64,000 nucleotides of DNA from Ectocarpus siliculosus (Eukaryota; Sar; Phaeophyceae; Ectocarpales; Ectocarpaceae): assembly GCA_000310025.1 (NCBI GenBank), contig FN649740.1, forward strand, positions 2,404,831-2,468,830, read 5' to 3'. Under the pieces are notes generated by a model. It had not been told where the DNA came from and made no database searches. It worked only from the letters and a program-made list of their open reading frames with translations. Each line of letters begins with the position of its first letter. Positions within the stretch are counted from its first letter, which is position 1. The position numbers and the translations under genes are program-made. Of this stretch, positions 18,824-34,200 are shown in pieces.

Positions 18824-19496
18824 TTACCCCTCATTCGTGAATTCGCCACAGTAAAGCACGGCGTGCGCACAATGCTGCTGTACTCGTCAAGGCTAATCGA
18901 TACCGCAATGTCTCTCTCTTAGCTTGCTCATTAAACACCCTCCACCTGTACACCAAATCGACTTTCCTGGCTTTTAGATGCCTCTGGTAAGCGGGCGATC
19001 TTCGGTATCGCTTCTTCCGCAGGGCTCTGATGCGGCGTATGTCGTACTCTGGAGCATTCACGACGACGAATCCGTCCCGCACGGGCCCAGTAGGCTTGGT
19101 GGATGGTTTTCTTGTCGAGATCCATCCGCTGTCCTTTGTCGCACCCATGGCTGATGAACGGCCGGAAGTGTTGTGTGGTGTGGGAGAAATCGTTTGGCGT
19201 CTTGTGGAAGGAAATGTTCTAGACGTTGGCGGGCCTACGGGGAAAAAAATTAAGAAACGACCCGGTTTCTGGAACACCTTGTCGCTTCTGCCACATGCAG
19301 TTGTGTGGACGCCAACGCAACAACGCAACTCGTAGCAAAAGATGTCCCGCGAGTTCCGAAATAGCGAAATTTCGTACTCACCCACGCGTGGGTGAGTAGG
19401 TGTTCAGGAAGCCATCAGCTAAACATTTCTCTAGAAGGCGGGACATTTTTCGCGCTTTCCCCCGCTGAATAAATAAGTCTCGTCTTTTCGCTGCAG

Positions 19497-19568
19497 GTGC
19501 CATCCCACCGGAGCTGGGGAACCTGGCAGCACTGCAAACGCTTAACCTCGGGTGGAACCAGTTGAGCG
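19497..19568 (+). CDS. LRR exon 1 of array
   Basis: Exactly 72 nt between AG and GTGAGT, phase 1 at both ends. Codes AIPPELGNLAAL...LNLGWNQLSG, a plant/bacterial-type LRR. Confidence 0.85.
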
Positions 19569-19689
19569 GTGAGTATCTAAAATTTTGTGATCGAATTTTA
19601 GTATGAATCCCGTGTATGCGTACGCAGGACTCATGATGTTTTTGTGCAAGATGATCGGGGGAACCAAATTTCGTGTTCTCGCTACTCAC

Positions 19690-19761
19690 CGCTTAGCTGG
19701 TTGGTCGGAAGGGAGAGCACCTTCAGTGCTTCAAACTTTCCGAGCTCCGGCGGGATGGGGC
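19690..19761 (-). pseudogene. Inverted LRR exon between LRR 1 and LRR 2
   Basis: Exactly 72 nt on the minus strand with its own AG and GTGAGT. Codes PIPPELGKFEAL...LSLPTNQLSG without stops. It is intact as an exon but lies antisense to the host gene. Confidence 0.85.
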
Positions 19762-19974
19762 CTGCAAGCAGAAGAGCAAAAAATGAAATCAGCTGGAAAC
19801 AAAGAAACAGCTCCCCGCTTTCGAGAACATCCACCTACTCACCCACGCATAGGCGGGTACGAAATTTCACAATTGCGGAACTCACGGGACGTCTTTTGCT
19901 ACGCGTGTCGGTGAGTAGGCGGAGAAGCATTTAGTCAATTCTCTGTTTCTCTCGTACTGCTCTCCTGCTTGCAG

Positions 19975-20046
19975 GTCATATCCCTCCGGAGCTAGGGAAG
20001 CTTGGCGCGTTGAAGACACTCGAACTCAGCGCCAACAAGTTAGATG
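19975..20046 (+). CDS. LRR exon 2
   Basis: 72 nt, phase 1/1. Codes HIPPELGKLGAL...LELSANKLDG. First copy of the 268-bp duplication. Confidence 0.85.
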
Positions 20047-20242
20047 GTGAGTCCAGAGATGAAATCCATTTCATTTACTATTTTGTTGACACAAGGTACA
20101 TGAATCTCGCCGACGCATAGGCGGGTACGAAATTTCACAATTGCGGAACTCACGGGACGTCTTTTGCTACGCGTGTCGGTGAGTAGGCGGAGAAGCATTT
20201 AGTCAATTCTCTGTTTTTCTCGTACTGCTCTCCTGCTTGCAG

Positions 20243-20314
20243 GTCATATCCCTCCGGAGCTAGGGAAGCTTGGCGCGTTGAAGACACTCGAACTCAGCGC
20301 CAACAAGTTAGATG
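20243..20314 (+). CDS. LRR exon 3 (duplicate of LRR exon 2)
   Basis: Identical 72-nt exon to 19,975-20,046, created by the 268-bp tandem duplication. Confidence 0.85.
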
Positions 20315-20476
20315 GTGAGTCCAGAGATGAAATCCATTTCATTTACTATTTTGTTGACACAAGGTACATGAATCTCGCCGACGCGTGGGTAAAGTAGGTG
20401 CTCTAGAAACCGGGTAGTTTATTTACGCTTTCCCCCGTTCAATTCATATGACTGCGGTTATTCGCCATTTGCGCAG

Positions 20477-20548
20477 GAACGATACCGGAGGCGCTAGGGA
20501 AGCTGACTGCGTTGCAGGGGCTTTATCTGCATCGCAACAAACTCTCAG
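20477..20548 (+). CDS. LRR exon 4
   Basis: 72 nt, phase 1/1. Codes TIPEALGKLTAL...LYLHRNKLSG; donor GTGAGG. Confidence 0.85.
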
Positions 20549-20680
20549 GTGAGGAAACGGAAAGGTTGTTTTGGAATGTAGAAGAGTCACACCCACGCGT
20601 TGGCAGGACCGTTTTTCTAGACGCCGGGGATTTTTTTTTTTTCTCTCCCGCCAACTTCTTATTTTCCCTTTGTCTGGCAG

Positions 20681-20752
20681 GCAACATCCCGCCAGAGCTA
20701 GGAGATCTCCGACAGGTGCAGAAGCTGTGGCTCAACCACAATCACCTCACAG
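20681..20752 (+). CDS. LRR exon 5
   Basis: 72 nt, phase 1/1. Codes NIPPELGDLRQV...LWLNHNHLTG; donor GTACCT. Its intron family recurs around LRR exons 7 and 11. Confidence 0.85.
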
Positions 20753-20903
20753 GTACCTATTTTATTTTGATGGTCGGTTTATTTTTCTAGCATTGGTCCA
20801 TGGATGAATCTCGCCGATTTCGCGTCCACGAAACTTCAGAACTAGCGGGATAGCTTCTTCTGTACCCTGTCAAACTGCCCTGCGTTGAATCGTTCATCTG
20901 CAG

Positions 20904-20975
20904 GCCATATCCCGCCTCAGCTCGGACAGCTTGGCGCCCTGAAGACCCTCGACCTCTCCATGAACAAGTTAGATG
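20904..20975 (+). CDS. LRR exon 6
   Basis: 72 nt, phase 1/1. Codes HIPPQLGQLGAL...LDLSMNKLDG. Close relative of the inverted exon at 22,890-22,961. Confidence 0.85.
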
Positions 20976-21126
20976 GTGAGTTAACAGACCAAAAAGAGTT
21001 TTGTTTTCTTTCGATTTCTGAAAATGCATGAATCCCGCGTATGCGTTGGGAGGACCATTTTTCTAGACGCCGGGGGATTAAGTTTGTTTTCTCCCGCCAA
21101 CTTCTTATTTTCCGTTCCTCTGGCAG

Positions 21127-21198
21127 GCAACATCCCGCCAGAGCTAAGAGATCTCCGACAGCTGCAGTGGCTGTGGCTCAGCAACAACCACCTCACAG
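21127..21198 (+). CDS. LRR exon 7
   Basis: 72 nt, phase 1/1. Codes NIPPELRDLRQL...LWLSNNHLTG; near copy of LRR exon 5 with matching introns. Confidence 0.85.
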
Positions 21199-21358
21199 GT
21201 ACGTATTTTATTTTGATGGTCGGTTTAGTTTTTTTCTAGCATTAATCCATGGATGAATCTCGCCGATGCGTTGGCGTCCACTCACTGGTCTAGAAGCCGG
21301 GGCATTACTTTTGTTTTGACCCGCAACCATCACTCCGTTTTCCTTCTTCCACTTACAG

Positions 21359-21430
21359 GTCCCATTCCGCCGGCGCTAGGAAAGCTCGCAGCGCTTCGAG
21401 AGCTAAACCTCGGCGAGAACCAGCTAAGCG
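21359..21430 (+). CDS. LRR exon 8
   Basis: 72 nt, phase 1/1. Codes PIPPALGKLAAL...LNLGENQLSG. Confidence 0.85.
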
Positions 21431-21599
21431 GTGAGACACTCTTTAGATGTGTTGAAAAAAATTCCCATGAATTTTCATTATGAATCCCGTGTATGCGTTG
21501 GCGTCCACGAAACTTTTGTACGGGACCAATGTTCTAGAAAGCGGGGGGTTGTTTTCTTTTGTCCCGCTGAGCTACTCCGTTCCGTCCGTCCGCTTGCAG

Positions 21600-21672
21600 G
21601 CCCCATCCCATGGGAGCTTGGGCACCTTTTCAGCACTGAAAAGGCTCTACCTTTCCAACAACCAACTGAGCG
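21600..21672 (+). pseudogene. LRR exon 9, 1-nt frameshift
   Basis: 73 nt instead of 72. The first half reads PIPWELGHL in the expected frame; the second half reads SALKRLYLSNNQLSG only one frame over. The extra base is probably in the CCTTTTC run near 21,629. Splice sites are intact. Because all exons are phase 1/1, skipping it would keep the reading frame. Confidence 0.85.
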
Positions 21673-21903
21673 GTGAGTCAACATTTGATTTCATGACTGT
21701 TCCACGACCGATTTTGCGGCGAGTCCCGTGTACGAATCTCGCTGATGCACGTGAGTGGACGCTAACGCGTTGGCGTCCACGAAACTTCAGAAATAGCGGG
21801 TACGAAATTTCACAATTTCGGAACTCGCGGGACATCTTTTCCTACGCATTTTTTTCTACAACTATCCTCGCTGATATTTGCTCCCTGCTGCATTCTTGTG
21901 CAG

Positions 21904-21975
21904 GACCCATCCCCAAGGAGCTGGGAGCACTTAGTAGGCTGGAGACGCTTTGGCTCAACGACAACAACCTCACAG
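21904..21975 (+). CDS. LRR exon 10
   Basis: 72 nt, phase 1/1. Codes PIPKELGALSRL...LWLNDNNLTG. With its introns it is a near copy of LRR exon 12, about 475 bp downstream. Confidence 0.85.
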
Positions 21976-22119
21976 GTGAGAGAATCGAAGAAGAGTTGAA
22001 AGTTTTCTTGTTCACGAAATAAGAATCCTGCCGACGCGTTGGCAGGACCGTTTTTCTAGACGCCGGGGGATTTATTTTATTTTCTCCGGCCAACTTCTCA
22101 CTTTCCCTTCGTCTGGCAG

Positions 22120-22191
22120 GCAACATCCCGCCAGAGCTAGGAGATCTCCGACAGCTGCAGACGCTATATCTCAACGGCAACCGCCTGACAG
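22120..22191 (+). CDS. LRR exon 11
   Basis: 72 nt, phase 1/1. Codes NIPPELGDLRQL...LYLNGNRLTG; same exon/intron family as LRR exons 5 and 7. Confidence 0.85.
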
Positions 22192-22378
22192 GTACCTATT
22201 TTATATTGATGGTCGGCTTGATTTTTTTCTAGCATTGGTCCATGGATGAATCTCGCCGATGCGTAGGCGGGTACGAAATTTCATTCACAATTTCGGAACT
22301 CGCGGGACATCTTTTCCTACGCATTTTTTTTCTAGAACTGTCCTTAGTGATATTTCTCCCTACTGCATTCTTGCGCAG

Positions 22379-22450
22379 GACCCATCCCCAAGGAGCTGGG
22401 AGCACTTAGTAGGCTGGAGAACCTTTGGCTCCACCGCAACAACCTCACAG
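22379..22450 (+). CDS. LRR exon 12, last plus-strand exon of the main run
   Basis: 72 nt, phase 1/1. Codes PIPKELGALSRL...LWLHRNNLTG. The orientation of the array flips shortly after its intron (about 22,510-22,560). Confidence 0.85.
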
Positions 22451-22600
22451 GTGAGAGAATCGAACAAGAGTTGAAAGTTTTCTTGTTCACGAAATAAGAA
22501 TCCTGCCGACGCGTACGCGTCCACGAAACTTCAGAACTAGCGGGATAACTTTCATGACGCCAATTACATACGCGGCATTCATGCTCAACTTCAGCCTCAC

Positions 22601-22672
22601 CGGATAGCTGGTTGTTCCACAGTTGGAGCTGCACCAGCGCTGTTAGCTTGCCCAGCTCCGGCGGGATAGGCC
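22601..22672 (-). pseudogene. Inverted LRR exon
   Basis: 72 nt on the minus strand with AG and GTGAGG. Codes PIPPELGKLTAL...LQLWNNQLSG. Open, but antisense to the ROCO gene. Confidence 0.85.
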
Positions 22673-22889
22673 CTGTAAGCAGACAAGCAAACTAGATTGA
22701 TCCTCATTATTTTATGTTCGATCTCCGTAGATCCATGGACGCGTACGTAATTGGCGTTCATAAAAGTTATCCCGCTAGTTCTGAAGTTTCGTGGACGCGT
22801 ACGCGTTGGCGTCTATTCACGCAGTACGCGGGATTCATGCAGGCAGAACTCGCAAGAAAACAGAACTCTCTTCGATCTTTTCAACTCAC

Positions 22890-22961
22890 CATCTAACTTG
22901 TTGCCGGAGAGGTAGAGGTACTGGAGGGCGCCAAGCTGTCCGAGCTGAGGCGGGATATGGC
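22890..22961 (-). pseudogene. Inverted LRR exon
   Basis: 72 nt, minus strand. Codes HIPPQLGQLGAL...LYLSGNKLDG; acceptor CTGCAG, donor GTGAGT. Related to LRR exon 6, including its upstream intron (CGTTCATCTGCAG). Confidence 0.85.
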
Positions 22962-23206
22962 CTGCAGATGAACGATTCAACGCAGAGCAGTTTGGCAGGG
23001 TACAGAAAAAGTTATCCCGAGAGTTCTGAAGTTTCGTGGACGCCAACGCGTGGGTGAGTACGAAATTTCGCAATTTCGGAACTCGCGGGACATCTTTTGC
23101 TACGAGTTGCGTTATGTAAGTGTTTCTAGAAGCCGGGGCATCGGCGAGGTTCATCAAGATCAACGCTAAAAACAATTTGAAACCATTGTCAAAATATAAA
23201 ATTTAC

Positions 23207-23278
23207 CTGTGAGCTGGTTGCTGCCGAGACTCAGCGTGTCCAACTCTCGGAGATCTCCCAGCTCCTTCAGGATCGCGC
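23207..23278 (-). pseudogene. Inverted LRR exon
   Basis: 72 nt, minus strand. Codes AILKELGDLREL...LSLGSNQLTG; donor GTAAAT. Confidence 0.8.
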
Positions 23279-23442
23279 CTGCAGCGAAAGTGCAAACAAG
23301 AATAGAGCGGAAGTGTAGCGGGAAATACAAAAAACAAATCCCCGCCTTCGAGAAGGACGTGTCCTGCTAACGCAGTACGCGGGATTCATGCGTGTTTAGA
23401 ACTCGAAGGAAAATAAAACGCATTTTGAATTGTTCAACTCAC

Positions 23443-23514
23443 CATCTAACTTGTTATCGTTGAGGTAGAGGTTGTGGAGGGCGCCAAGATTTCCTAGCTG
23501 CGGCGGGATATGGC
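23443..23514 (-). pseudogene. Inverted LRR exon
   Basis: 72 nt, minus strand. Codes HIPPQLGNLGAL...LYLNDNKLDG. Confidence 0.85.
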
Positions 23515-23635
23515 CTGTAGACGAGGGAGTCAACGCAGGGCAATTGGGCAGGGTAGACAAAAAGTTATCCCGCGAGTTCTGAAATTTCGTACCCGCCTAC
23601 CCCGCGGTGGGTCAACACGTGATTTGATGGATCTT

Positions 23636-23702
23636 TCCCGATCGATTTTGCATGAGCTTGGCGCCTCGACGATATTCAATCTCAGCTTCAACGAGTTGGA
23701 TG
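23636..23702 (+). pseudogene. Degenerate plus-strand LRR exon
   Basis: Codes ILHELG then ASTIFNLSFNELDG before a GTGAGT donor. It is about two codons short and has no clear acceptor or IPxxL start. Orientation is opposite to its two LRR neighbours. Confidence 0.65.
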
Positions 23703-23833
23703 GTGAGTCCAGGAGATGAAATCCATTTTATTTTCTATTATGTTGAACAAGGTACATGGATCTCGCCGATGTAGTTGGCGTCCACACATATTTTTATTCA
23801 TAGGGCCAGTTCGCACATATAACAATTTCGTAC

Positions 23834-23905
23834 CTGTAAGCTTGTTGTCGTAGAGGGCGAGAACCCGCAGTTCGCTTAGATCCCCCAGCTCCGGCGGAAT
23901 GTGAC
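23834..23905 (-). pseudogene. Inverted LRR exon
   Basis: 72 nt, minus strand. Codes HIPPELGDLSEL...LALYDNKLTG; donor GTACGA. Confidence 0.85.
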
Positions 23906-24070
23906 CTGCAAGCGCCAATACGGAGTTTGGGTCACGGGACAAAAAATGTTTTCCCCCGGCTTCTAGAACACTGCAGAGACTTGAGTGGGTGGGACAAGAT
24001 CTACGGAGATCGCAAAACAGTTTTTTTCCGAACTCCTACAAAATGTCTTGCTTTGATGCCACATCTACAG

Positions 24071-24102
24071 GACACATCCCACCACAGCTAGGAGATCTAA
24101 GC
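24071..24102 (+). pseudogene. Half LRR exon (5' half)
   Basis: After the acceptor CTACAG it codes HIPPQLGDLS and then breaks into unrelated intron-like sequence (CACACGGGATTCATCC). A rearrangement breakpoint lies inside the exon. Confidence 0.7.
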
Positions 24103-24181
24103 GCACACACGGGATTCATCCAAGAAATTTGGGCGGGGAGAAACAAGAGGTTATGTTGACCTAACCTAAAAATTGACTGAC

Positions 24182-24206
24182 CGCTTAGCTGGTTGTTCCC
24201 CATGGA
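24182..24206 (-). pseudogene. Half LRR exon (3' half, inverted)
   Basis: The minus strand ends in GNNQLSG followed by GTCAGT. The first half of the repeat is missing; a second breakpoint inside an exon. Confidence 0.55.
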
Positions 24207-24697: not shown

Positions 24698-24929
24698 GTC
24701 TCGGCGAAACCGAGGATGCATTGCGACTGGTGGAGAGGCTCGGAGACAATCTGCTTCTGCAAAACAATCCGTGGATCATGCCGCCCGAGGGTGTGGTGGA
24801 GGCGGGATTGACTGCCGTCAAGAGATACCTCGTGGACGTTCAAGAGACCAAGAAGGCCGGGGCTGATGTCACGTCCCTCCAGCTTCTCAAGGTGGTCTTG
24901 GTTGGCTCGGCTTCGGCTGGAAAGACTAG
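24698..24929 (+). CDS. ROCO exon: LRR-Roc linker and P-loop
   Basis: Phase 1 in, phase 2 out. Codes a helical linker (EDALRLVERLGDNLLLQNNP, then LTAVKRYLVDVQET) and the start of Roc with the Walker A motif GSASAGKT. The exon ends with AG, which pairs with T of the next exon to give the Ser after GKT. Confidence 0.9.
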
Positions 24930-25236
24930 GTGGGTTTTCTGTGGCAAACAGCGGCATTTGTGCACATTCCGTCATCCCACAGACGGATCATTGAACAACT
25001 CTACCTAATGTTTGTAAGTAGAGTAGCCAGGCACGGCTTGCTCAGACGAATCGCGCTGCGCTGTGACTTGGCGAATTCAGTCGAGGCCGGTTGACGGTGA
25101 CAGGGCGCTTGCCACGACATCCGCGGATCGAGGCCCTGGATAGTGCTGTTGCTTCTGTGGATTACTTCGCACTTCGGCAGAGGTTGAACCCTATCTGTTT
25201 CACCACTCCTCGTGTCGCCATGTTGAACGATGGCAG

Positions 25237-25474
25237 TTTGATGCAGAGCATCATCGCGGGCCGTGGCTCCCCGACGAAGGGGACGCCAGCGCAGGCGAGT
25301 ACCGTGGGGATGGAGCTGCGTCCTCATCAGCTCCAGGACACAAAAGTTGAGTTCTTCGACTGCGCTGGACAGGTCGACTACGCCGGAATGCACCAGACAT
25401 TTCTCACACGACGGGCTCTGTACCTGCTGGTGGTGGATATCACGAAGTACCACGGTGTGGACGACCTTGACAAG
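25237..25474 (+). CDS. ROCO exon: Roc GTPase G2-G3 region
   Basis: Begins SLMQSIIAGRGS directly after GKT, contains TPAQASTVGMEL (switch I region), and FFDCAGQVDYAGMHQTFL with the DxxGQ G3 motif, then YLLVVDITKY. The acceptor GGCAG at 25,232-25,236 is chosen because it gives exact continuity of the GTPase fold. Ends in phase 0 before GTGCGC. Confidence 0.9.
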
Positions 25475-25861
25475 GTGCGCGTGCCTCAGGCTGACGTGAT
25501 TGTATTCCGGTAACTTGCAGTACTCGTATTTTTACTTGGATGGCGTTGTATGGGTGTGTTGCAAGCCTTGTAGATTCGAGCATGCAAGCATATTCAGGGG
25601 CCATTCGTGGTTACAGGGTCGAAGGACCCCACGGTACACACACAACGCTTGGTAAAAACGACACCACCTTGTACCGGGTCCCGACCCTTGAAGAAGGCCC
25701 AAGCCATTGCATTGATTTTATCTCAATGCTCTCGCTCTCCTCACCAATTCAAACCCACCCTCGGCTTTGTCGCGTTATCTATCAAGCGCCAACATCTCAG
25801 GACCGTTTTCAACCCAATTCAAAACTCGTCAACTGTTCGTCGCTGACGTTGCTACGTGCAG

Positions 25862-31132: not shown

Positions 31133-31204
31133 GATGCGTGCCAGCACACCTCTTGAAGCTCGTCTACCTGCGATCGGTGGACCTCCGCGACAACAAGCTC
31201 AGTG
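31133..31204 (+). CDS. LRR exon of the ZU5 gene
   Basis: 72 nt, phase 1/1, acceptor CGCACAG, donor GTGAGG. Codes CVPAHLLKLVYL...VDLRDNKLSG. Confidence 0.8.
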
Positions 31205-34200
31205 GTGAGGATTTCGATTTCCCGTCCAGAAGTTGTATGTTGTTTTCCCGCTCGTTTTCAGCTTGCTTTTTGGAGCTGTCCCACATCCTGAACTCCAATG
31301 AAAACTCCATGGGTGCATTTACAGGTCCTGCGCCTTCAGTGAAGCAGCTGAATGATCTTCGTCGTGCTTTTGTTTCGTCGGGCGACAAGTGCAAAGGTAT
31401 GACGCAGTCCGGGCTAGAGTGCTCGGATGATGAAGATGTTCCTGCTGAGCGAAGTCACGTTGCGGGCATGTACATGGTGGCAAAACGCCGTTTTTTTGCG
31501 CCGCCCTGGGAGGCTATTGGCACCCCCCTTCAAAACCAGTCCTTCATGACCAGATTGTCCGCAACCACACTCTTGCGGTAGTTCGACCAAGCATTCGCCG
31601 CCAACAATGCGGGAATCTTGTTTTCCATTTTCTAAGCTATTTTTTTTATTCTGGAGTGCATGTCCACACTTGCGACATATAATATGACCAGCGTTCGTTT
31701 GTGTTGCATTCTTTGCAACCACAGTTTTGCCTGAGACCTTCACCAACAATGACAGGACCTATTGATGAAACGATGGAACGCATATCGCAGCAGCCGCGAC
31801 CACTGGGGTATGTCTAATACTCTCCACCGTGCGGCACAGAAAAAATCGTGGACGGCATCGTTGCCTGGTCTCAACATTGATTGTTGTTTGATGGATGAGG
31901 GGTTTCCACGTCCAGCGTTAGTGACCCCTGGTCTAGCTCTTCACATTTTGATATGTTTGCTCAGATTTCACACGGCCTTCCTGCAGTCCCGTTTCGTCGT
32001 CATCTGCACAATCGGCACACGTAGTTGAAAATGTGGTGCATCGATGTACTACATTGAAAGGCTGTCTCTGTAGGCTCCGGACAAACGGCGTTTTTTTTGT
32101 CGTGTAATGGTGTGAACAGTCCATGGTCGACGATCGTCAAATGTCAGCGGCTAGTATGGCAGCAGTGTGGCGGCCCAGAGTTTACCTGGAATCATTGAAC
32201 AGCGCGCTACGGTCAGAACTCGCTGCGTAGTACATGGCCCATCTTCTATTTGTGCGCGGTTGCTCGAAGTTCTAGAAGGGAAAATATGCCATCTTTGGGT
32301 CATTTTTCCCCTGCTTTTGGATTACCAATGGCACGAAGAATGGCACGAAGAAACGGGCTCTTCTGTCAGAATCGAAAAAATACATATTCGAACGTTTGTG
32401 ATTTCCGCTCGCATTAGAAACGGCCTTCACAAAGTCCGCACCAAGATTCTTCGAAATATTAATATTCCCCCCTTCACACAGAGAATACGTAAGGTTTTTT
32501 CCTCCCACGAAAATCCGCACGTCTTTCCTCTGTCACAGCAGGGTCCGAGCAAGGTGACGCGGCAACTCTAGCCGAACATGATGGGTCGAGGACAAAGAAT
32601 GCCGAGGGTGCACAGAGTGCGGATGATGGATCGACCTCCACGACGAGCAAAATGGCCACCGCCGCTCTTGGTACAAGTTTTAACACAGGTAAGACTTTAC
32701 CCCGCTTTTGTGGTCGCCTGGCTGTCGGCGTGTCGATGCGTCTGCTGAGCATTGTAGGCTGGACTAGAGCCGTCCGGAAACAGGCCAGGAGCAACGCAGA
32801 GGCGTGTGAAGAAGTTTTCTTGTTCTGTACCTCATTTTTCAGAGGTAAATTTGAACATTTTTGGTCTGTAGGAACCATTGAATTTGACTTTTCGGGTCGG
32901 CGCAGATAAGCGCACACTCCTTGTGATGAAGCGCTTTATATCTTGGTACCCACCTGCTACACGCGTGTCAGACTTCCAGACTTGAGCTCAAGTAGTAGAC
33001 CTCGGCTCCTCCCAGACTGAAGAAAGCCGGATGGATGTCTACAGATGTAACAAAGATGAAGCACACGGTTCCCAACTCTGTTGAGTTGCTTACCCTCCCC
33101 CGTCGTCAGGTCTACGCTGAGCACGTGGGCCTCCCATGGAGCGGAGATGAACGTTGTACTCATTACTCTTGAATCGCACGTTGGTGTACACTTTTTTTGC
33201 GTGTTCCGCCTAGTCCCCGACAACTGCAAGCAGCAAGGAAGGTGGAGTTCAGCGAGAGGAAGAGACAATTGTGTTTTCACTGGTGCTGGGATCGTGGAAA
33301 GGGCCTTTTTCGGCTCCCCCGAGATTGTTTCGGGATCCTTGTTTTGTACCTCGTTGATTTCCAACAGAGGCCATCAGACAGAGTACACTGAAACGGCTTA
33401 TGGTAAACTACGTTTTTTTTTTGTCGCCGTGCCCCTTGTGCAGGACCTATTCCTGTGGCGCTGGGATCTCTCAGCAGGCTGCAGCAGCTCTCCCTGTCCT
33501 GCAATGAGCTTACCGGTAAGAGCCGGGCACCCATCATGCCCCACTTGTAGAAGGTTTCGCCGCGAGTGGTAGAGGACCCCTGGGCCAATCCCGCTTGCAC
33601 GCTCTCCTGGGGCAATTCGCAACTATTCGCACACTTTCAAGAGGAAGTGACCGGGATCGTCTTAAGGAGATCGTGCCGAGATTTCTCCTTACACGTCCTT
33701 CCTCTACCGATTACCGCAAGCAGGCAGTTCGATGGAATCCCGCCCATTCGGCCTTGGCAAGAACGAATATGACACCGGTGCCAAGGTTCCAGTCGTATCA
33801 GGTACGTCGTTGCGGGCTGCCCGAAACACACGATCATCGCCCAGTGCACTACCGAGAGGTTGAGAGGCAATTCACCCTGTGCCGACCTTTCATTTTATCG
33901 CCGCCCGACTCGCAAATTTCGAGGGGGACATGTTCGCTTGGTCTTTCGGAGATCAAGAGGAGAGTATCCAAAGCCCTGGGTGTGAGTTTGAGCTCAAGGT
34001 GCCCAACCAGGGGAGAACTGTTCCTGCCCTGATCGGCCTCGGCCTGTGCTCGGGCTCAGCCGAAACAGCGGACGGAAAGCAGTGTCTGCTACATCCCGTA
34101 CTGACATGCGTCGCCGGTGTTGGAGAGACATTCGACCCCCCGCTCCTTCTGCGGTTTCCCGTCGGAGACGTGGACTCAATGGAATCGGGCTCCGAGCGCG

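What the first reader, a model, noticed from the sequence alone, without database searches (positions are those of the whole stretch)
19497..24206. LRR exon array on both strands: exon-shuffling hotspot
Twelve plus-strand and six minus-strand LRR exons, each 72 nt (one 73) with phase 1/1 splice sites, lie interleaved in under 5 kb. Every unit can be added, lost, inverted or skipped without changing frame. Published work on Ectocarpus ROCO genes proposed LRR exon shuffling as a way to diversify candidate immune receptors; here intact inverted modules sit inside the array, as if exchangeable stock.
Basis: partly seen in the sequence, partly recalled or inferred. Interest (0 to 1): 0.9.

Follow-up and report, generated by a model that had tools for sequence, protein, structure and literature searches.

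The report
Flip-and-shuffle receptor exon cassettes
In this seaweed-like genome, small ready-to-splice exons that each encode one repeat of a recognition receptor sit in random orientation, joined at a shared palindromic DNA site, and look as if they are copied one at a time between places in the genome, which may be how the organism keeps inventing new receptors.

Summary
In detail: 12 plus-strand and 6 minus-strand LRR exons (72 nt; one of 73 nt, frameshifted) lie upstream of a ROC-GTPase exon. It is not a local oddity. Of 27 regions scanned, 17 array segments are mixed: 116 plus and 122 minus exons, with junctions donor-acceptor 109, acceptor-acceptor 55, donor-donor 54, the 2:1:1 of random orientation. 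Most introns (140 of 218) carry a palindromic joint (AYGCRT, often within CRCCNAYGCRTNGGYG). Homology between copies ends in that core 6.9 times more than coverage predicts (seven control hexamers 0.4-1.5), at its central GC. Of 360 close exon pairs 318 are cross-locus, and neighbours are shared at only 19 of 670 positions: the unit that moves is one cassette of about 230 nt. Antisense and orphan exons mostly keep frame and splice sites, and their changes concentrate at ligand-face codons. Best reading: a germline pool of splice-ready LRR cassettes, cut and rejoined at a palindromic site, feeding ROCO receptors. The enzyme and any somatic activity are undemonstrated. Brown-algal LRR exon shuffling is published (Teng 2024, parts read; Zambounis 2012 not available); my searches listed no description of inverted cassettes or such joints.

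The parts
19497..19568 (+). LRR exon GAIPPELGNLAALQTLNLGWNQLSG
19690..19761 (-). inverted LRR exon GPIPPELGKFEALKVLSLPTNQLSG
19975..20046 (+). LRR exon, identical to the next (268-bp tandem duplication)
20243..20314 (+). LRR exon, second copy of the duplication
20477..20548 (+). LRR exon
20681..20752 (+). LRR exon
20904..20975 (+). LRR exon
21127..21198 (+). LRR exon, identical to L019:7525 (other contig, opposite strand)
21359..21430 (+). LRR exon, identical to copies in L023 and L024
21600..21672 (+). 73-nt LRR exon with a one-base frameshift
21904..21975 (+). LRR exon
22120..22191 (+). LRR exon, identical to L019:6815
22379..22450 (+). LRR exon, identical to L019:7797
22601..22672 (-). inverted LRR exon
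22890..22961 (-). inverted LRR exon
23207..23278 (-). inverted LRR exon
23443..23514 (-). inverted LRR exon
23834..23905 (-). inverted LRR exon
19384..19389 (.). palindromic joint core ACGCGT in TACTCACCCACGCGTGGGTGAGTA
20113..20118 (.). joint core ACGCAT
20381..20386 (.). joint core ACGCGT
20595..20600 (.). joint core ACGCGT
21041..21046 (.). joint core ATGCGT, left border of the cassette shared with L019
21266..21271 (.). joint core ATGCGT, right border of the same cassette
21765..21770 (.). joint core ACGCGT in GTGGACGCTAACGCGTTGGCGTCCAC
22034..22039 (.). joint core ACGCGT in TCCTGCCGACGCGTTGGCAGGA
22259..22264 (.). joint core ATGCGT, left border of the second cassette shared with L019
22509..22514 (.). 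joint core ACGCGT, right border of the same cassette (plus to minus junction)
22801..22806 (.). joint core ACGCGT
23046..23051 (.). joint core ACGCGT
24698..24930 (+). exon after the array, phase-1 acceptor, P-loop GSASAGKT; 3' end approximate
   Evidence: translation; no Pfam match on its own
25104..25504 (+). ROC GTPase exon (Pfam Roc 8.4e-7); ends approximate

Best explanation
Each unit is a cassette: palindromic half-site, acceptor half-intron with AG, 72-nt phase-1 LRR exon, donor half-intron with GT, palindromic half-site. Cassettes are broken and rejoined at the centre of a short imperfect palindrome (AYGCRT, often CRCC-N-AYGCRT-N-GGYG, break at the central GC), so any cassette can join any other in either orientation and each joint is rebuilt as a usable site. 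Over generations single cassettes are copied between arrays on different contigs. Where an array lies upstream of ROC exons, cassettes of the same strand are spliced in frame into the ligand-binding LRR domain of a ROCO receptor; antisense and orphan cassettes are intron or stock until they are moved or inverted into sense. SHOWN by sequence comparison: cassette anatomy, random orientation, break position, single-cassette sharing, selection signature. INFERRED: that a nuclease or recombinase makes the breaks; that antisense cassettes return to use; that the receptors serve immunity. NOT SHOWN: expression, and any somatic activity.
For: Orientation 116 plus/122 minus in 17 mixed array segments; junctions 109 donor-acceptor, 55 acceptor-acceptor, 54 donor-donor; 110 orientation changes against 114.2 +- 7.1 in shuffles. 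Strict core in 140 of 218 intervals against 16.3% of shuffled intervals; with related 6-7-nt cores 181 of 218 against 27.3%; 104 cassettes with exactly one exon bounded on both sides, median 232 nt. Ends of BLAST matches fall in the core 6.88-fold over coverage; seven other array hexamers give 0.40-1.52. The variable core base follows the arm on its own side (MI 0.474, null 0.083 +- 0.030, maximum 0.233 of 2000) and not the other arm (0.071), in the 60 joints of 244 whose two arms could be typed; same for 52 unique joints (0.487 and 0.061). Among related cassettes with different neighbours, core position 2 agrees in 99% (donor side, 92 pairs) and 92% (acceptor side, 84 pairs), position 5 in 48% and 50% (pairs not independent). 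Two window cassettes are identical to copies on contig C11 over 227 and 252 nt, from the G of one core to the C of the next, and not one base further at either end; one copy is on the opposite strand. Of 360 close exon pairs 318 are cross-locus; neighbours shared at 19 of 670 positions, background about 1.3%. Donor-end motif: 74 in the genome, 0 in the control. Intact: 228 of 257 exons. In antisense exons of three ROC-linked arrays, 11 of 13 polarised changes are nonsynonymous in six ligand-face codons, 10 of 13 in the four codons that correspond to Teng's four positively selected sites. Synonymous changes are not raised in the six codons (12 of 66, 18.2%, against 18.4% expected).
Against: No recombinase is linked to the arrays: one partial serine-recombinase match and one integrase match in the genome search, both elsewhere. 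78 of 218 intervals lack a strict core and 37 lack the extended one; among mixed arrays L029 (2 of 12 intervals), L037 (5 of 17) and L042 (6 of 16) are poor in cores, so the site is not the whole story or has drifted. The contrast with the two mono-oriented arrays is weak: L038 has cores at chance (8, 7.6 expected) but L039 is 1.9-fold (5, 2.7), like L037 and L042, and strict cores lie in 3 of 5 and 4 of 9 of their short intervals. In the exon-anchored test 839 of 2189 match ends fall before the first core and 460 go beyond it. Exons of the two mono-oriented arrays are distant from the cassettes, so most ROCO genes may not use the stock. Structural constraint is weaker in orphan arrays (ratio 0.52) than in sense exons of ROC arrays (0.29). 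The polarised-change test used only intact exons and an incomplete set of arrays, and the six codons were chosen from the same data. No RNA, strain or tissue data.
Confidence: 0.6

Rival explanations
1. Palindrome-centre breakage without a dedicated enzyme: the imperfect palindromes extrude, break at the centre and are end-joined, as at human palindromic AT-rich repeats. Same anatomy, no evolved recombination system.
For: Breaks at the centre of symmetry; joints are rebuilt as palindromes such as TACTCACCCACGCGTGGGTGAGTA. [quoted passage not shown]
Against: Those palindromes are hundreds of bp and AT-rich, and one fusion is reported with deletion of a few nucleotides (PMC4940405). Here the symmetric part is about 16 bp and the hexamer is kept exactly at 80 of 143 donor arms and 26 of 51 arms of one acceptor type.
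Confidence: 0.18
2. Microhomology-mediated template switching during replication that uses the common 6-nt core as microhomology.
For: The core is short and shared; cassettes are copied rather than only moved (29 identical exon pairs; identical copies of window exons elsewhere).
Against: Seven other frequent array hexamers show no such break enrichment; core position 2 is almost wholly inherited with its own arm and position 5 is not, which fits a fixed central break better than a break anywhere in the microhomology.
Confidence: 0.1
3. Ordinary birth and death: segmental duplication and inversion by ectopic homologous recombination; the inverted exons are dead relics in an intron.
For: Some multi-exon segments are shared (13 unique pairs); 29 of 257 exons are not intact (two of them because of N runs) and 20 more fragments exist; the window has a 268-bp tandem duplication.
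Against: Neighbours shared at only 19 of 670 positions; homology stops preferentially at one motif; antisense exons change mainly at ligand-face codons.
Confidence: 0.07
4. Programmed somatic recombination: cassettes are inverted or copied in body cells to build individual receptors, as proposed for brown algae by Zambounis et al. 2012 (not read; known from citations in PMC11378527 and from recall).
For: Palindromic joints with a central break and cassettes in both orientations beside ROC exons are the anatomy such a system would need.
Against: All data come from one assembly; Teng 2024 states that somatic recombinant ROCO loci and a dedicated recombinase have not been reported (PMC11378527 section 15); no candidate enzyme here.
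Confidence: 0.04
5. Assembly artefact: inverted exons are misjoined repeats.
For: Four of 17 mixed arrays contain N runs (L019, L021, L029, L037), and L037 has identical exons on opposite strands on either side of its gap.
Against: 13 of 17 have no N; three mixed-orientation segments recur on different contigs at 82.5-95.7% identity; 2:1:1 junctions and exact core breaks are not expected of misassembly.
Confidence: 0.01

Closest known systems
LRR exon shuffling in brown-algal ROCO genes (Zambounis 2012, not read; Teng 2024 PMC11378527: abstract, section list, sections 11 and 15 and a term search seen)
   Same: 72-bp exons each encoding one LRR, equal phase, upstream of ROC; diversifying selection at concave-face sites; LRR-only sequences named by Teng as a possible reservoir
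   Different: In Teng's main text the term search found no 'opposite strand', 'antisense', 'orientation' or 'reverse'. Here: random orientation, palindromic joints, central break, single-cassette sharing. Whether Zambounis describes any of this I could not check
Lamprey VLR germline cassettes (PMC3308329, passages read)
   Same: LRR modules flanking a receptor gene, in forward or reverse direction, used as stock
   Different: VLR cassettes are copied somatically by a gene-conversion-like process guided by short similarities, and by recall are not splice-ready exons; somatic assembly is not shown here
Bacterial shufflons and serine-recombinase invertases (recalled; serine-integrase central dinucleotide from PMC3783163 passages)
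   Same: Short pseudo-palindromic sites with a central crossover; DNA segments in both orientations; a symmetric central dinucleotide (GC) would give no polarity
   Different: No recombinase identified; eukaryotic; units are exons shared between contigs
Human palindrome-mediated translocations (PMC4940405, passages read)
   Same: Break at the palindrome centre, hybrid palindromes as products
   Different: Long AT-rich palindromes; no cassettes
Dscam-type exon arrays (mentioned in PMC11378527 section 15)
   Same: Tandem alternative exons encoding one domain type
   Different: Splicing of fixed arrays; by recall one orientation and no movement between loci

Membership tests
Brown-algal ROCO LRR-exon array | 72-nt exon encoding one LRR, equal phase at both ends | tested here: met
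   17 of 18 exons with 72 nt, AG/GT and phase 1/1; one has 73 nt
Brown-algal ROCO LRR-exon array | ROC domain downstream on the same strand | tested here: met
   Pfam Roc 8.4e-7 in window 25103-25504 +
Brown-algal ROCO LRR-exon array | COR domain after ROC | tested here: inconclusive
   No COR match in the four window pieces scanned after the array; Pfam COR-A matches only one place in the whole genome, so the model seems to miss it here
Brown-algal ROCO LRR-exon array | Diversifying selection on concave-face LRR sites | tested here: met
   Excess nonsynonymous change at codons 14, 15, 17, 19, 20, 22 and at the four codons corresponding to Teng's sites
Brown-algal ROCO LRR-exon array | Expression and alternative splicing of LRR exons | not testable with these tools
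   No RNA data
VLR-like somatic cassette system | Receptor modules in both orientations next to a receptor gene | tested here: met
VLR-like somatic cassette system | Somatic assembly differing between cells | not testable with these tools
   One assembly only
Site-specific recombination (shufflon or invertase type) | Segments bounded by a common short symmetric site with exchange at its centre | tested here: met
   not all intervals carry the site
Site-specific recombination (shufflon or invertase type) | Cognate recombinase gene | tested here: inconclusive
   One partial resolvase match (C16:5122087) and one integrase match (C76:55488), neither linked to the arrays; nucleases and transposases not searched
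Target-site-duplicating transposon cassette | The same target sequence duplicated on both sides, belonging to the target and not to the element | tested here: not met
   Core half-bases travel with the cassette's own arm

The most novel reading that the evidence does not exclude
A eukaryotic exon shufflon: a dedicated enzyme cuts and rejoins splice-ready LRR exon cassettes at the centre of a short palindromic site, in either orientation and between chromosomes, as a built-in generator of receptor diversity, possibly also in somatic cells.
Probability: 0.25. Interest if true: 0.97.

Novelty: new variant of a known kind. Interest (0 to 1): 0.86.

Why it matters
It has been proposed that brown algae diversify candidate immune receptors by DNA recombination; Teng 2024 (section 15) notes that no recombinant locus or recombinase has been reported. 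A defined short site, a defined cassette and a defined break point make the proposal directly testable by PCR, long reads and biochemistry. It would also be exon shuffling whose breakpoints lie at a sequence-specific site rather than at random in introns, and a further LRR-based route to receptor diversity beside plant LRR receptors and lamprey VLRs.

Tried and rejected
Targeted hypermutation of ligand-face codons (DGR- or AID-like): rejected because synonymous changes are not raised in those codons (12 of 66, 18.2%, against 18.4% expected) and 132 of 305 differences between close copies do not involve A. A transposon-like cassette with target-site duplication: rejected by the core-base test. 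A dispersed intron repeat unrelated to LRR exons: the two intron pieces searched gave 22 and 42 matches, which lie in the clusters where LRR exon matches lie. The same site in NB-ARC genes: donor-end matches do not coincide with the 27 NB-ARC matches; TPR exons were not scanned. Signal domains beside orphan arrays: 10 longer flank ORFs of the 150 listed gave one sub-threshold Pfam match. COR domain: one Pfam COR-A match in the genome, not near this gene. Antisense exons as RNA-level splice regulators: complementary stretches exist (for example 164 nt, 91%) but nothing tested it further.

Limits of sampling: I scanned 26 fetched regions plus the window (27). 19 had at least four exons (17 mixed, 2 mono-oriented or nearly so); 8 had none or one. 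Two window hits beyond 25 kb were left out of the array counts. Regions were chosen from intron-repeat, LRR and ROC matches, which favours mixed arrays; many LRR and ROC places listed were not fetched. Some segments are near each other on one contig (L029/L030, L027/L028, L022/L041, L023/L042), so 'cross-locus' counts include some pairs within a contig and the segments are not all independent. Intervals over 600 nt were left out of the interval counts. The sense strand of L019 is assumed from a ROC match about 7 kb away beyond an N run.


Full report
What is there. The 54 ROC-family matches (some will be other small GTPases) and 27 NB-ARC matches fit a brown alga, probably Ectocarpus; that identification is my inference, no call names the organism. 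A 25-residue LRR profile finds 12 plus and 6 minus exons at 19497-23905, 17 of 18 with intact AG/GT and phase 1/1; five shuffles of the window give none. One exon (21600-21672) has 73 nt and a broken frame. A phase-1 exon with a P-loop follows (24697 onward), then a Roc exon (25103-25504, 8.4e-7), so the plus exons are in the sense of a ROCO gene and the minus exons are antisense in its introns. The joined peptide of the intact plus exons matches plant LRR receptor-kinase ectodomains best in the PDB.

It is a genome-wide pattern. Two intron pieces of the array gave 22 and 42 genome matches in a few clusters, and an LRR exon query gave 150 matches scored of 321 candidates, in the same and further clusters, often on both strands. 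I fetched 26 regions. With the window, 19 of 27 had four or more exons: 17 mixed and 2 mono-oriented or nearly so (L038, all 9 minus; L039, 8 plus and 2 minus, one of the two minus not intact). In the 17 mixed segments there are 116 plus and 122 minus exons; neighbouring pairs join donor-acceptor 109, acceptor-acceptor 55, donor-donor 54; orientation changes number 110 against 114.2 +- 7.1 in within-array shuffles. Orientation is thus random overall. The window array is more ordered than that (3 changes, p 0.007), possibly because a ROC gene needs sense exons; this is inference.

The joints. Reading the introns of the window showed that nearly every interval holds a palindromic hexamer AYGCRT, and its arms come from a small set. 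In the 17 segments 140 of 218 intervals hold it, against 16.3% of shuffled intervals; related 6-7-nt cores raise this to 181, against 27.3% in shuffles; in the window 15 of 17. Mixed arrays differ: L022 17 of 20 and L024 16 of 19, but L029 2 of 12, L037 5 of 17 and L042 6 of 16. The mono-oriented arrays are a weak contrast: L038 has 8 cores against 7.6 expected, L039 5 against 2.7, and 3 of 5 and 4 of 9 of their intervals under 600 nt hold a strict core. The fuller site CRCCNAYGCRTNGGYG occurs 63 times in the genome and 7 times in the reversed control; 50 places are listed, and by my comparison 30 of these 50 lie at LRR exon clusters and 20 do not. In the window 14 of 15 site-like places lie in the array. 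The donor-end motif has 74 matches and none in the control; by my comparison 69 lie within 5 kb of an LRR exon match and five do not.

Where copies break. Ends of pairwise matches fall inside the core 6.88 times more often than coverage predicts; seven other frequent array hexamers give 0.40-1.52, and one that overlaps the core, CGCGTA, gives 6.44. An exon-anchored test agrees: 392 of 1742 ends at a core against 117 +- 10; but of 2189 ends on sides that have a core, 890 are at the first core, 839 before it and 460 beyond it. Two tests place the break inside the core. First, the variable base of each half-core depends on the arm of its own side (MI 0.474, null 0.083 +- 0.030) and not on the other arm (0.071), in the 60 joints of 244 whose two arms could be typed; the same holds for 52 unique joints (0.487 and 0.061). 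Second, in related cassettes with different neighbours (92 of 135 donor-side and 84 of 128 acceptor-side pairs), core position 2 agrees in 99% and 92% and position 5 in 48% and 50%; the inner arms were selected to be similar and four core bases were fixed by the search, but positions 2 and 5 were free. Beyond the core only a GGCG-like half-site is partly shared, then similarity is near chance. The exchange is therefore best placed at the central GC of a symmetric site, and each product is again such a site. Example: the cassette of the exon at 21127 is identical over 227 nt (21043-21269), from the G of one core to the C of the next, with a copy on contig C11 in the opposite orientation; one base more at either end breaks the identity. 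The cassette of 22379 is the same over 252 nt (22261-22512). Not all related pairs are this clean: others shown have scattered differences, or identity that ends inside or beyond the joint.

The moving unit is one cassette. 104 cassettes with exactly one exon are bounded by strict cores on both sides, median 232 nt. Among 360 exon pairs differing at 6 or fewer of 72 nt, 318 are at different loci; the neighbour is shared at 19 of 670 testable positions, background about 1.3%. Thirteen longer shared segments exist; four contain exons of opposite orientation, one of them a self-match in L037 and three between contigs at 82.5-95.7% identity, which argues against misassembly. Mixed-array exons have a median nearest-neighbour distance of 4 nt, and 156 of 223 are within 6; exons of the two mono-oriented arrays are 12-28 nt away, so mobile cassettes and fixed ROCO arrays look like separate populations, on two examples of the latter.

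Selection. 228 of 257 exons in the 19 arrays are fully intact (two of the 29 others are cut by N); 20 further fragments are decayed. Between nearest neighbours most structural positions change little (pN 0.00-0.03 at the conserved Gly, Ile, first Pro, Leu and Asn, against pS mostly near 0.10), while codons 14, 15, 17, 19, 20 and 22 have pN 0.12-0.29. In pairs with 6 or fewer differences the excess is at positions 1 and 2 of codons 14, 15, 17, 19 and 20, much less at their third positions. Teng et al. report positive selection at sites 14, 16, 18 and 19 of the 23-residue repeat (PMC11378527, section 11), which are codons 15, 17, 19 and 20 here. Polarised changes that are nonsynonymous at my six codons: 11 of 13 in antisense exons of ROC-linked arrays, 13 of 22 in sense exons, 102 of 215 in orphan arrays; at Teng's four: 10 of 13, 11 of 22 and 84 of 215. 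Structural constraint is weaker in orphan arrays (nonsynonymous to synonymous ratio 0.52) than in sense exons (0.29); the antisense value (0.59) rests on two changes. Only intact exons entered, so the absence of stop changes is by construction, and my six codons were picked from the same data. Synonymous changes are not raised there (12 of 66, 18.2%, against 18.4%), so this is selection on protein and not local hypermutation. Splice dinucleotides change less than introns (AG 0.011, GT 0.028; intron stretches 0.043-0.161 per site, 88 pairs). Antisense and orphan copies therefore carry the marks of receptor exons in use: either they are used (transcription of the other strand), or cassettes pass between silent and expressed positions faster than they decay. 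I favour the second because of the cross-locus identity, but cannot exclude the first.

Mechanism and rivals. The most likely process is germline cut-and-join at the palindrome centre. A symmetric central dinucleotide would remove orientation specificity, as the central dinucleotide decides productive alignment in serine integrases (PMC3783163, passages read); this analogy fits the 2:1:1 junctions. No enzyme is identified. Palindrome-centre breakage and end joining is the main rival (PMC4940405, passages read). Lamprey VLR cassettes, which lie in forward or reverse direction beside the receptor gene (PMC3308329, passages read), are the closest functional analogue; somatic use is not shown here.

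Literature. Teng et al. 2024 (PMC11378527: abstract and section list, sections 11 and 15, and a term search) describe 72-bp LRR exon shuffling, selection and LRR-only sequences as a possible reservoir, and note that somatic recombinant loci and recombinases have not been reported. Zambounis et al. 2012 is not held. The listings show no paper whose title or abstract start describes inverted LRR cassettes or palindromic joints in brown algae; I did not read the listed papers other than those named. An Ectocarpus transposon paper (PMC12477816, term search only) does not contain a word beginning with LRR.

Check of this report. It confirmed the two exact cassette borders and the independent four-codon test, and it weakened the contrast with mono-oriented arrays, now told above.

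Noticed in passing
window 19838-20373: Two tandem copies of 268 bp at 99% identity, each with one identical LRR exon; each copy begins 7 nt before a joint core.
   Followed up: partly
window 33444-33515 and 31133-31204: One moderately scoring and one weak lone plus-strand LRR exon with AG/GT, about 6-8 kb downstream of the ROC exon.
   Followed up: no
window 19851-19900 and 20119-20168, and other arrays: A 50-nt exonless mini-module with a core on each side; its inner sequence is found in many arrays in both orientations.
   Followed up: partly
L037 (C26:5006500-5012500): Identical exons on opposite strands near a 100-N gap: a real large palindrome or an assembly error.
   Followed up: no
arrays L017-L042 and the window: A possible second joint type with cores such as ACTAGT and 7-nt hybrids such as ACTGCRT or AYGTAGT, as if two half-site families are joined with loss of one base.
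   Followed up: partly
window 19497-22450, translated plus exons: The LRR class (GxIPxxLGxLxxLxxLxLxxNxL) resembles the plant receptor-kinase type; best PDB matches are GSO1, FLS2 and PEPR1.
   Followed up: no
G000:C16:5122087-5122275 and G000:C76:55488-55793: The only serine-recombinase and integrase family matches reported for this genome; not examined further.
   Followed up: no
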